Source: Planctomyces sp. SH-PL62 (GTDB lineage: Bacteria; Planctomycetota; Planctomycetia; Planctomycetales; Planctomycetaceae). Taken from it: a stretch of 45,433 nt of DNA. The number at the start of each line of letters is the position of its first letter. Within the stretch, counting starts at the first letter, position 1. The notes under the pieces are model-generated. The model made no database searches. It had not been told where the DNA came from and saw only the letters and a list, made by a program, of their open reading frames with translations. The stretch lies in NCBI GenBank assembly GCA_945905295.1, contig CAMDPX010000030.1, positions 1 through 45,433 of the forward strand, read 5' to 3'. Positions 18,153-20,822 of this stretch are shown piece by piece. Made by a program: the position numbers and the translations under genes.

Positions 18153-20822
18153 ATGACAGATTTCTTCATCAGCTATAACAAAGCCGACAAGACCTGGGCC
18201 GAGTGGATCGCCTGGGAGTTGGAGGCCAAGGGATTCACCACGGTGATCCAAGCCTGGGACTTTCGTCCCGGCTCCAGTTTCATTTTGGAAATGCAGCAAG
18301 CAGCGGCTGGGGCCGAGCGGACGATTGCGGTTTTATCGCCGGAGTATCTGGCCTCAGAATTCACACAGCCGGAGTGGGCGGCGGCCTTCGCCAAAGATCC
18401 CACGGGGAAGAAGCGATCGTTGCTGCCGGTGCGAGTCAAGAAGTGCGATCTCGCCGGCTTGCTGCCGCAGATTGTCTATATCGACCTCGTGGATAAGAAC
18501 GAGGCTGAGGCTCAGACCGCATTGCTCACCGGGATTGAAACGGGGCGTGTCAAACCGGCCACGAAACCGAATCCGTTTGGTGCCAAAGCCGCGGCCAAGG
18601 CCATCTCCGACAAGCCGCGGTTTCCCGGAGCGTTGCCGGACGTGTGGAACGTCCCGCATGAGCGGAACCGGAACTTCACCGGGCGGGATGAGTTGCTCAA
18701 GCGGTTGCGAGAGGCTCTGACAGCGGGGCAATCGGCGGCGTTGGTGCAGGCGTTGCATGGACTCGGCGGGATTGGGAAGACGCAGATGGCGGTCGAGTAT
18801 GCGTATCGGCATGTCGGCGACTACGACTGTGTGTGGTGGGTGCGAGCGGAGGAGGCGGTGACGCGGGATGGCGATCTCGCCGCGTTGGCGCAGGCGCTGG
18901 AACTTCCGGAACGGGACGCTCAGGACCAGCGACAGATCATCGCGGCGGTGAAAGACTGGCTCGGGCGGCATTCGCGATGGTTGTTGGTGTTGGACAACGT
19001 GCCGCATCCCCAGGATCTCGACGGCGTGCTGCCGCAGCATCCGCTGGGGCACATCCTGATCACTTCGCGCGACCCGAATTGGCGCGAGCGGGCCACGCCG
19101 CTCCCGGTCAACGTCTTCGAACGCCCAATCTCGGTGGAGTTCCTGTTGAACCACACTAACCCGAAGCGCGAGCGAGGGCATGGGGCCAGCGACGTCTCTC
19201 CCTCGCTGGCGCTTCGGGTTAGTGTGCCGGAGGCACAGGCCGCCGATCAGTTGGCCGGCGAGCTGGGAGATTTGCCGTTGGCGTTGGCTCAGGCGGTGGC
19301 GTACATGGAGGAGACGCAATTGTCGATCGGTAAGTATCTCGAACTCTTTCAGAAGAGACGCTCCGACCTGTGGGGGGACGAACAGGCCCCGTTGGGTCAT
19401 CAAGAGACGGTCGCCCTCACGTTCGGGCTGAGCATCGAGCGGCTGGAACAGACTTCCGCAGTCTCCAAAGTGTGGGCGGACTTCGCCGAAGTCCGCGGAT
19501 CGCCAGCGAAGCTGGGCGATGCCGATTTCGGCGAAATCGGCCTACGGCCGGAGACTTCGGAAGTCTCCGCCGAGAATCTGGCGGCCGTGGACTTGCTCTA
19601 CCTGTGTGCGTTCTTGGCTCCGGATGACATTCCCCGCTCACTCATCGCGGAGGGCGGAAAGCGCCTGCCCGCCCACTTGGCCGCCGTCGTGTCGGACGAG
19701 CTGACGTTGAATCGCGTCCTGAAGACGTTGCGGAGCTATTCGCTGATCGAACTCACGGCCGAATCCTTCTCCGTGCATCGCCTGCTCCAAGCGGTCTGCC
19801 GCGACCGGTTGCAGATGCCCGGCTTTTCCAAAAAGCCGGGCATCTTTGGTCCCCAACCGTTCGTCGCCGCTGCGGTCAAGCTGGTCAACGACGCCCTTCC
19901 CGGAGACTCGCCCATCAACGTGGCGAGCTGGCCGGTGATTCAGACGCTCTTGCCCCATGCCCAGTCGGTCGCAACACACGCCGAGAGACTCGGTATCGAG
20001 CCTCAGGCCACCGGGCGACTGCTGAACCACGTCGGACTCTACTTGCGGATTCGCGCCGAGTTCGCCGAGGCGAAGAGCGTCCTCGAACGAGCCGTCAGCA
20101 TTGGCGAACAAGCACTCGGGTCGGATCATCCCAACGTGGCCATCCGCGTGAACAACCTCGGCAGCGTGCTCAAGGATCTTGGTGACCTGCCGGGGGCGAG
20201 ACAGGCGTTTGAGCGGGCCTTGAAGGTTGGCGAGAAGGCATTCGGGCCGGATCATCCCAACGTGGCCATCCGCGTGAACAACCTCGGCAGCGTGCTCCAG
20301 GATCTTGGTGATCTGCCGGGGGCGAGACAGGAGTTTGAGCGGGCGTTGCAGATCTTCGAGAAGGTGCTCGGGCCGGATCATCCCAACGTCGCCACCCTCT
20401 TGAACAACCTCGGCGGCGTGCTCAGGGATCTTGGCGACCTGCCAGGGGCGAGACAGGCGTTTGAGCGGGCGTTGCAGATCTTTGAGAAGGTGCTCGGGCC
20501 GGATCATCCCAACTTCGCCACCGTCTTGAACAACCTCGGCGGCGTGCTCAGGGATCTTAGCGACCTGCCGGGGGCGAGACAGGCGTTTGAGCGGGCGTTG
20601 GGGATCGACGAACAGGCGTTCGGGCCGGATCACCCCGAAATAGCCACCGACGTGAACAACCTCGGCAACGTGCTCCGGGATCTTGGGGATCTGCCGGGGG
20701 CGAGACAGGCGTTTGAGCGGGCGTTGGGGATCTTCAGGAAGTTCCTCGGGGATGAGCACCCGAAGACGCGGAACGTGCGAGAGAATCTTGAGATCGTGAA
20801 CAAGTTGCTGGCAGGCAAGTGA
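18153..20822 (+). CDS. TIR-NB-ARC-TPR protein (STAND/NLR-like), candidate immune sensor
   Basis: 889 residues. N-terminal TIR domain (about 1-130: MTDFFISYNKAD, LSPEYLASEF) with candidate NAD-cleaving glutamate E74 (QPEW). Then NB-ARC/STAND ATPase: P-loop GLGGIGKT (203-210), Walker B WLLVLDNV (276-283) and a GLPLA-like GDLPLALAQ (372-380). The C-terminal sensor has kinesin-light-chain-type TPRs of 42 residues (about 640-885), five of them near identical. Domain order matches NLR-like proteins used in bacterial anti-phage defence, where a sensed ligand triggers oligomerisation and NAD depletion; that role is inference. Three palindromic repeats are translated in frame (about residues 334-358, 433-472, 555-565). 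It is monocistronic and divergent from glnD (299 bp). Confidence 0.92.
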   Translation: MTDFFISYNKADKTWAEWIAWELEAKGFTTVIQAWDFRPGSSFILEMQQAAAGAERTIAVLSPEYLASEFTQPEWAAAFAKDPTGKKRSLLPVRVKKCDLAGLLPQIVYIDLVDKNEAEAQTALLTGIETGRVKPATKPNPFGAKAAAKAISDKPRFPGALPDVWNVPHERNRNFTGRDELLKRLREALTAGQSAALVQALHGLGGIGKTQMAVEYAYRHVGDYDCVWWVRAEEAVTRDGDLAALAQALELPERDAQDQRQIIAAVKDWLGRHSRWLLVLDNVPHPQDLDGVLPQHPLGHILITSRDPNWRERATPLPVNVFERPISVEFLLNHTNPKRERGHGASDVSPSLALRVSVPEAQAADQLAGELGDLPLALAQAVAYMEETQLSIGKYLELFQKRRSDLWGDEQAPLGHQETVALTFGLSIERLEQTSAVSKVWADFAEVRGSPAKLGDADFGEIGLRPETSEVSAENLAAVDLLYLCAFLAPDDIPRSLIAEGGKRLPAHLAAVVSDELTLNRVLKTLRSYSLIELTAESFSVHRLLQAVCRDRLQMPGFSKKPGIFGPQPFVAAAVKLVNDALPGDSPINVASWPVIQTLLPHAQSVATHAERLGIEPQATGRLLNHVGLYLRIRAEFAEAKSVLERAVSIGEQALGSDHPNVAIRVNNLGSVLKDLGDLPGARQAFERALKVGEKAFGPDHPNVAIRVNNLGSVLQDLGDLPGARQEFERALQIFEKVLGPDHPNVATLLNNLGGVLRDLGDLPGARQAFERALQIFEKVLGPDHPNFATVLNNLGGVLRDLSDLPGARQAFERALGIDEQAFGPDHPEIATDVNNLGNVLRDLGDLPGARQAFERALGIFRKFLGDEHPKTRNVRENLEIVNKLLAGK
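19152..19226. repeat. In-frame palindromic repeat encoding TNPKRERG...SLALRVSV
   Basis: 75 bp (25 codons) with 17-nt perfectly complementary ends (19152-19168, 19210-19226) and further inner pairing. It adds a peptide in the NB-ARC between strand motif and the GLPLA-like motif. The NPKRERG/SLALRVS peptide is a familiar mark of dispersed repeats in planctomycete genomes. Confidence 0.92.
19450..19566. repeat. Nested in-frame repeat: GTAG/CTAC element inside another inverted repeat
   Basis: The outer arms (19450-19466 and 19550-19566) are complementary with one mismatch. Inside them lies a paired-hairpin element 19472-19545: a GTGG foot (one base from GTAG), stem GCGGACTT/AAGTCCGC, loop CGCCG, spacer, stem GCCGATTT/AAATCGGC, and CTAC at 19542-19545. 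All of it is translated in frame within the TIR protein. Confidence 0.85.
19813..19845. repeat. In-frame hairpin with AGCCCGGCTT-type stem
   Basis: 15-bp perfect stem (19813-19827 with 19831-19845) and a 3-nt loop, translated as MPGFSKKPGIF. Its core matches the terminator-like hairpin at 100-140. Confidence 0.85.
20124..20753 (+). repeat. Five tandem 126-bp units encoding TPRs
   Basis: Units begin at 20124, 20250, 20376, 20502 and 20628, each 126 bp (42 codons), with high nucleotide identity including silent positions. This points to recent duplication or gene conversion, a way to vary the sensor array of the TIR protein. Confidence 0.93.

What the first reader, a model, noticed from the sequence alone, without database searches (positions are those of the whole stretch)
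19152..19845. Three different palindromic repeats translated in frame within the TIR-NB-ARC-TPR gene
A 75-bp TNPKRERG-type repeat, a nested GTAG/CTAC element within another inverted repeat, and a CCCGGCTT hairpin all lie within about 700 bp of one open frame without a stop. The inserts fall in the NB-ARC/winged-helix half. Either the protein tolerates loops there or selection for diversity keeps them.
Basis: partly seen in the sequence, partly recalled or inferred. Interest (0 to 1): 0.7.

Follow-up and report, generated by a model that had tools for sequence, protein, structure and literature searches.

The report
Mobile palindromes translated inside immune-like gene
Three unrelated short mobile-type DNA palindromes lie in reading frame in surface loops of one bacterial immune-receptor-like gene; the same kind of insertion occurs in other genes of this bacterium, so it is a vivid case of a known process.

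Summary
ORF 18153-20822 (889 aa, TIR/NB-ARC/DUF7779/TPR) contains three different palindromes within 19152-19845 and stays open. They are insertions: in an alignment with 27 homologues (26-48% identity) the core positions of inserts 2 and 3 are empty in 27 of 27, and each core position of insert 1 in at least 24 of 27. AlphaFold2 gives low confidence in the middle of each insert, between helices. Insert 1 is a dispersed family (82 half-sites in the genome, control 0), present in 12 of 12 genus genomes; it flanks a Y1 transposase gene in one sister species, and a subtype does so in another. Insert 2 is a GTGG/GTAG-tagged REP-like pair nested in another inverted repeat; insert 3 is a small hairpin family. 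A 445-kb sample of the genome has 142 such hairpins, 39 inside ORFs. Best reading: REP/TIR-type mobile palindromes fixed where the protein tolerates a loop. Intragenic REPs, even two per gene, are already described (PMC3733652, passages). Selection for diversity is not needed, but not excluded: 3 of 4 NB-ARC genes carry inserts, and a Chloroflexi homologue has an unrelated repeat in the same loop.

The parts
18153..20822 (+). Host gene: 889-aa TIR_2 / NB-ARC / DUF7779 / TPR protein (NLR-like STAND ATPase)
   Evidence: Foldseek matches to plant NLRs, Apaf-1 and CED-4
19152..19226 (.). Insert 1: 75-bp family-A palindrome, read as HTNPKRERGHGASDVSPSLALRVSV (residues 334-358)
   Evidence: IR; 82 half-sites in the genome, control 0; residues 340-352 each occupied in 2-3 of 27 homologues; pLDDT under 50 at 340-353
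19450..19571 (.). Insert 2: nested palindrome, about 120 bp, about 40 residues (434-473); outer arms 19450-19466 and 19550-19566
   Evidence: residues 435-472 occupied in 0 of 27 homologues; pLDDT under 50 at 448-451 and 453-469, the first part being modelled as an extension of helix 416-447
19472..19496 (+). REP-like unit inside insert 2: GTGG tag plus hairpin GCGGACTTCGCCGAAGTCCGC
19521..19545 (-). Inverted REP-like partner inside insert 2: GTAG tag (CTAC at 19542-19545 on +) plus hairpin GCCGATTTCGCCGAAATCGGC
19813..19845 (.). Insert 3: 33-bp hairpin AGATGCCCGGCTTTT-CCA-AAAAGCCGGGCATCT, residues 554-565
   Evidence: 4 other genomic sites; 7 copies in the held DNA of this genome, 2 of them in called ORFs; residues 563-567 occupied in 0 of 27 homologues; pLDDT under 50 at 559-563

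Best explanation
Three REP/TIR-type mobile palindromes of different families inserted into an NLR-like gene. Each survives because its length keeps the frame, it has no stop in the frame used, and it falls in a loop between helices; the cell translates them as extra, probably disordered, loops of about 25, 40 and 11 residues. Shown here: homologues lack them; inserts 1 and 3 belong to dispersed families of this genome; the middle of each is a low-confidence loop in the model; family-A palindromes flank a Y1 transposase gene in a sister genome and a subtype does so in another. Inferred: that a transposase of this type (RAYT/TIRYT, acting on single-stranded hairpin DNA) put them there, that they are nearly neutral, that they are translated in the cell, and the order of events.
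For: Homologues lack the peptides. Family A: 82 half-sites at up to 2 mismatches in the genome, reversed control 0; at up to 1 mismatch in 12 of 12 genus genomes and 38 of 119 genomes, own included. Insert-3 hairpin: 4 other genomic sites at up to 3 mismatches. Low-pLDDT segments fall in the inserts. In a 445-kb sample hairpins are about 22 times rarer per kb inside ORFs than elsewhere (0.098 vs 2.17; ORF-edge hairpins counted as elsewhere), as expected if most genic hits are purged. SelD fusion gene: a family-A element at the same site in 7 of the 11 genomes that have the gene (own included), absent in 4, no stop in the listed matches. In 46 genic elements the in-frame coding score of arms (0.034) and loops (0.018) is far below that of the flanks (0.363). 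Family-A arms on both sides of a Y1 transposase gene in G006 (L339/L349), and of a subtype in G001 (L352). 6 of 13 Y1_Tnp loci of the own genome have matched hairpins on both sides of the centre, of other families.
Against: The stem of the insert-2 REP-like unit is not repeated in the genome (itself plus one 2-mismatch site), so its mobility rests on its anatomy. No intact transposase of the family-A type was found in the own genome: the nearest relative is split over two frames at C374 and lies near a different palindrome family. Family A is at none of the 13 own Y1_Tnp loci, and of the 30 loci examined from four other genus genomes only L339 (and one weak half-site in L329) shows it. G011 has 126 family-A half-sites but no PF01797 match, only a more distant relative of that transposase. 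No transposase was linked to insert 3. No close orthologue with an empty site exists for this very gene. Movement was not observed. The low model confidence in the inserts is partly expected, since the alignment has few or no partners there.
Confidence: 0.86

Rival explanations
1. The inserts are kept by selection because NLR loops benefit from rapid diversification.
For: 3 of 4 NB-ARC genes found in the genome carry palindromes, against 24 of 304 other sampled ORFs (Fisher p 0.002; 0.020 without the gene under study). A Chloroflexi homologue (L031) has an unrelated dispersed repeat (28 hits in its own genome, control 0) in the same loop as insert 1. The paralogue at C68 has another family in another loop.
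Against: Corrected for length and without the gene under study the excess is weak (3 seen, 0.90 expected, P 0.063). The same kinds of element sit in conserved enzyme genes. Of 31 homologue loci scanned, 4 had a hairpin in the matched stretch (L040, L050, L121, L220); only that of L220 is recognisably a repeat, the other three were not tested for dispersal. The scan misses imperfect repeats such as that of L031.
Confidence: 0.12
2. The gene is dying and collects insertions because it is no longer used.
For: Three insertions in one gene are unusual (P about 0.0024 for a named gene), and no close orthologue was found in the genus. The elements are largely stop-free in most frames, so an open frame is only weak proof of use.
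Against: 889 codons without a stop, high coding score, TIR_2, NB-ARC and DUF7779 above the Pfam cut-offs, P-loop and other invariant residues kept; all three inserts keep the frame.
Confidence: 0.1
3. The palindromic segments are removed from the message or skipped by the ribosome, so that the protein lacks them.
For: They form very stable RNA hairpins.
Against: Their lengths keep the frame and the frame used has no stop, which would be needless. No removal system was searched for.
Confidence: 0.03
4. Native variable loops that happen to be palindromic, or an assembly artefact at repeats.
For: The loop of insert 1 varies in length in the family; the genome is a draft of 476 contigs.
Against: 142 hairpins against 0 in a Markov-1 version of the 445-kb sample; two of the three are dispersed families; the flanks of the inserts align with one continuous homologue.
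Confidence: 0.03

Closest known systems
Intragenic GTAG/CGTC REPs and repeats flanking RAYT/TIRYT genes (PMC3733652; passages seen)
   Same: Palindromic repeats wholly within ORFs, dimers encoding 20-30 aa, two insertions in one gene (uvrA of O. terrae), a DNA ligase among the hosts; both REP super-families reported from Planctomycetes, and R. baltica named with different REP families and many tyrosine transposase genes with flanking repeats; some dimer spacers differ in sequence.
   Different: Here three kinds in one NLR-like gene; insert 1 carries no GTAG tag; the insert-2 stem is not itself repeated in this genome.
Rickettsia palindromic elements (RPE; recalled, and mentioned in the passages of PMC3733652)
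   Same: Palindromes translated in frame inside unrelated genes.
   Different: Another organism; no RPE sequence was compared here.
REPtrons / TnpA_REP (PMC8266576, passages seen)
   Same: GTAG-tagged hairpins in inverted pairs near a Y1/HUH transposase gene.
   Different: Cleavage is shown there for elements of other species; nothing was tested at the bench here.
Coding palindromes in mitochondrial genes of Nematomorpha (PMC6649704; search listing and start of the abstract only)
   Same: Inverted repeats inside protein-coding genes.
   Different: Animal mitochondria; both arms said to encode protein; no link to the elements here was tested.

Membership tests
REP/TIR-type mobile palindrome (insert 1, family A) | Dispersed multi-copy repeat, often as inverted dimers | tested here: met
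   82 half-sites, control 0; 34 of 64 listed rows are inverted pairs, 30 single arms
REP/TIR-type mobile palindrome (insert 1, family A) | Flanks a Y1 tyrosine transposase gene | tested here: met
   Met in G006 (L339/L349) and, for a subtype, in G001 (L352); at none of the 13 PF01797 loci of the own genome
REP/TIR-type mobile palindrome (insert 1, family A) | Filled and empty sites among orthologues | tested here: met
   SelD fusion: filled in own, G002, G003, G005, G007, G009, G010; empty in G004, G011 (75-77% identity) and in the distant G001, G008 (about 37%). Movement itself not observed
GTAG REP (insert 2) | Hairpin with a GTAG-type tag at its foot, in an inverted pair | tested here: met
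   GTGG at 19472-19475 and GTAG (minus strand) at 19545-19542
GTAG REP (insert 2) | Stem sequence repeated in the genome | tested here: not met
   itself and one 2-mismatch site. So not filed as a member of a REP family, though it is built like one
Small dispersed hairpin (insert 3) | Multi-copy in the genome | tested here: met
   4 further sites at up to 3 mismatches; 7 copies in the held own DNA
Small dispersed hairpin (insert 3) | Associated transposase | tested here: inconclusive
   None seen near the 13 own Y1_Tnp loci; not searched further
Rickettsia palindromic element | RPE sequence family | not tested
   No RPE sequence was compared
NLR-like STAND protein (host gene) | TIR, NB-ARC, DUF7779 and TPR in this order, P-loop intact | tested here: met
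FxSxx-COOH system TPR protein (NF040586) | Model score above cut-off | tested here: met
   461.5 against 300 bits
FxSxx-COOH system TPR protein (NF040586) | Partner genes of that system nearby | not tested
   Neighbourhood not examined

The most novel reading that the evidence does not exclude
In this planctomycete lineage several RAYT/TIRYT-type palindrome families act together as a steady source of new in-frame protein loops. NLR-type genes are preferred or especially permissive acceptors, and certain loops are hit by unrelated elements in different phyla. At a fixed coding site (SelD fusion) the element differs in subtype between close species, which points to continuing turnover or gene conversion inside a coding sequence.
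Probability: 0.3. Interest if true: 0.62.

Novelty: new member of a known kind. Interest (0 to 1): 0.42.

Why it matters
It shows small palindromes of mobile type lying in frame in genes at a rate of 39 per 445 kb of one genome, with filled, empty and different sites among sister species at one locus. That makes the question 'can REP-like elements build new protein loops, and does selection ever keep them?' directly testable. For annotation it warns that peptides such as TNPKRERG, REGEAPAEP or VGHVSNVP can be translated repeats and not conserved motifs.

Tried and rejected
Native-spacer idea: the loops between arms look unrelated from copy to copy (by eye), so I asked whether the loop is host sequence with arms added around it. 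Coding scores of the loops equal those of the arms, not those of the flanks, so this is not supported. Alignments of G010 with the own genome gave 29 indels of 20 or more bases, 8 of them with hairpins, none clean enough to fix insertion ends.

An intact family-A transposase in the own genome was sought and not found. The insert-2 stem gave no family. Rfam: no match in the window at the gathering score. The transposase P0005 has no solved relative by sequence at E 0.01. PADLOC gave only weak partial matches to the host protein.

Paper searches in the held open-access library: among the rows listed I saw no paper on translated palindromes in planctomycete NLR genes; two searches returned no paper. 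Only listed rows were seen, and most subscription journals are not held.

Limits: gene calls in the scripts come from a hexamer model trained on long ORFs of the same sample, not from a standard gene finder. The hairpin finder misses weaker pairs, insert 2 among them. The 445-kb sample is 20 stretches of 20 kb from large contigs plus the window, which was chosen for this finding.

Full report
What is there. ORF 18153-20822 encodes 889 aa with TIR_2, NB-ARC, DUF7779 and TPR domains. An AlphaFold2 model of residues 1-640, from an alignment of 18 sequences, has mean pLDDT 81; its Foldseek matches in the PDB include plant NLRs, Apaf-1 and CED-4 (TM-score over the query at most 0.44). The protein scores above the NCBIfam cut-off for the FxSxx-COOH system TPR family (461.5 vs 300 bits). 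As RNA they fold with z-scores of -10.2, -8.1 and -6.8, none of 200 shuffles as good in each case.

Are they insertions? I aligned the protein with 27 homologues from several phyla and from relatives (26-48% identity in their best segments). Residues 435-472 are occupied in 0 of 27 and residues 563-567 in 0 of 27. Residues 340-352 are each occupied in 2-3 of 27, and 353-359 in 5-7 of 27, so the loop of insert 1 is variable. In the search of 119 genomes (own included), several of the better hits stop near query residue 430-434 and resume near 473-481, which marks insert 2. In the model the segments with pLDDT under 50 are 132-157 (the linker after the TIR domain), 340-353, 448-451, 453-469 and 559-563. 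Apart from the linker these lie in the three inserts, between helices; the first part of insert 2 is drawn as an extension of helix 416-447. Low confidence there is partly expected, as the alignment has few or no partners at the inserts.

Insert 1 (family A). The half-site CTAACCCGAAGCGNNAGCGAGGG occurs 82 times at up to 2 mismatches in the 8.6-Mb genome, reversed control 0. At up to 1 mismatch it is in 12 of 12 genomes of the genus and in 38 of 119 genomes overall, own included. Of 64 rows listed in the stretches held, 34 are inverted pairs and 14 lie in called ORFs, one of these (L176:1427) probably a chance half-site. Arms are conserved; the loop between them differs from copy to copy.

Insert 2. 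Two hairpins tagged GTGG and GTAG face each other, nested in an outer inverted repeat: the anatomy of a REP/inverted-REP pair. Its stem is not repeated elsewhere. GTAG is the commonest tetranucleotide at the foot of hairpins in the genome sample (30 of 142; median tetramer 1), but only 3 of the 39 genic hairpins carry it.

Insert 3. The 33-bp CCCGGCTTTT hairpin has 4 other sites at up to 3 mismatches in the genome, and 7 copies in the own DNA held, 2 of them in called ORFs.

An open frame by itself says little: insert 1 is free of stops in 4 of 6 frames, insert 2 in 5 of 6, insert 3 in 6 of 6. What counts is that the lengths keep the frame (75, about 120 and 33 bp).

How general is it? In 445,433 bases (20 stretches of 20 kb plus the window) there are 142 hairpins with score 14 or more, against 0 in one Markov-1 version: 39 inside ORFs, 22 at ORF edges, 81 between genes, or 0.098 per kb of coding sequence and 2.17 per kb elsewhere, edges included. 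The 39 fall in 25 of 305 ORFs. Eight ORFs have two or more (3.65 expected, P 0.008) and two have four or more (P 0.0008). The ORF with six is a polyketide synthase. Another host is a MurJ-domain ORF, where the element is near the predicted N terminus and the start may be wrong. Family-A copies outside the sample lie in a DNA ligase-WGR gene and a SelD-oxidoreductase fusion. So the NLR-like gene is not special in kind.

A site followed through a genus. The SelD fusion was recovered in 11 of 12 genus genomes (in G006 only weak matches). A family-A element is at the same site in 7 (own, G002, G003, G005, G007, G009, G010), with more decayed arms in G003, G005 and G009, and absent in 4: G004 and G011 (75-77% identity) and the distant G001 and G008 (about 37%). 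The listed matches have no stops. Own, G002, G007 and G010 are about 91% identical, yet own and G002 carry one subtype (CCAAC/CTAAC...GCGCGAGC) and G007 and G010 another (GTAAC...GCGTCAGC). The element seems to have been exchanged or converted at a fixed coding site. This rests on one locus.

The likely mover. In G006 a Y1 transposase gene has family-A arms on both sides, and its reading frame runs into them. In G001 a relative is flanked by the subtype CTAGCCCGACGCGCAAGCGAGGG, and in G010 one is flanked by a related palindrome. Matches to this transposase were found in 8 of 12 genus genomes; every one of the loci read has palindromes near it, of several families, some of which also occur inside genes here (TGAGCGGCACGGCGCTAGCCG, GGCGAGC). 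Against this, of 43 PF01797 loci examined (13 own, 30 of others) only L339 shows clear family-A arms, with one weak half-site in L329. The own genome has 13 Y1_Tnp loci, 6 of them with matched palindromes on both sides of the centre, including GGGGTCGGGAGTCTTTTTC, which occurs three times in the polyketide synthase and at window 40535. The own relative of the family-A transposase is split over two frames at C374 near another palindrome family, so family A may no longer move here. That it ever moved by this enzyme is an inference.

Does selection keep them? Four NB-ARC genes were found in the genome. The gene under study has 3 inserts, C68 has 1 in another loop, C104 has 2 and C349 none in the pieces held. 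The excess over sampled ORFs is nominally significant (p 0.002, or 0.020 without the gene under study) but falls to P 0.063 when length is corrected and that gene is left out. A Chloroflexi homologue (L031) has, in the loop of insert 1, a different repeat with 28 hits in its own genome, control 0. This fits a permissive loop; it does not show selection.

Known or new? Passages of PMC3733652 report GTAG and CGTC REPs in Planctomycetes, intragenic REPs in several species with two in one gene, a DNA ligase among them, and R. baltica with many tyrosine transposase genes and flanking repeats. Passages of PMC8266576 show TnpA_REP proteins cutting single-stranded REPs of other bacteria. The present case is a new member of that kind, notable for three kinds in one NLR-like gene and for one coding site with filled, empty and different states in a genus.

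Noticed in passing
L241:1805-8986 (- strand): A 2394-aa polyketide synthase ORF holds six palindromes of at least three families, two of the families more than once.
   Followed up: partly
L220:2455-2538 (own genome, C68): The NB-ARC-TPR paralogue of the gene under study carries another palindrome family (REGEAPAEP...GSAGASPS) in another loop.
   Followed up: partly
L210:2195-2275 and orthologues L243-L252: At one coding site in a SelD fusion gene, closely related species carry different subtypes of the same palindrome or none.
   Followed up: partly
L163 near 1516 / L318: Two different palindromic sequences occupy the same aligned position in the own genome and G010.
   Followed up: no
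window 1-45433: 23 hairpins of score 13 or more in 45 kb, 17 of them not inside a called ORF, several tagged GTAG/CTAC.
   Followed up: partly
G000:C374:1726-2201: A Y1 transposase relative is split over two frames in the own genome.
   Followed up: no
G011: 126 family-A half-sites in a genome without a PF01797 match; only a more distant relative of the family-A transposase.
   Followed up: no
window 18153-20822: The host protein scores above the cut-off of the FxSxx-COOH system TPR family; its neighbourhood was not examined for that system.
   Followed up: no
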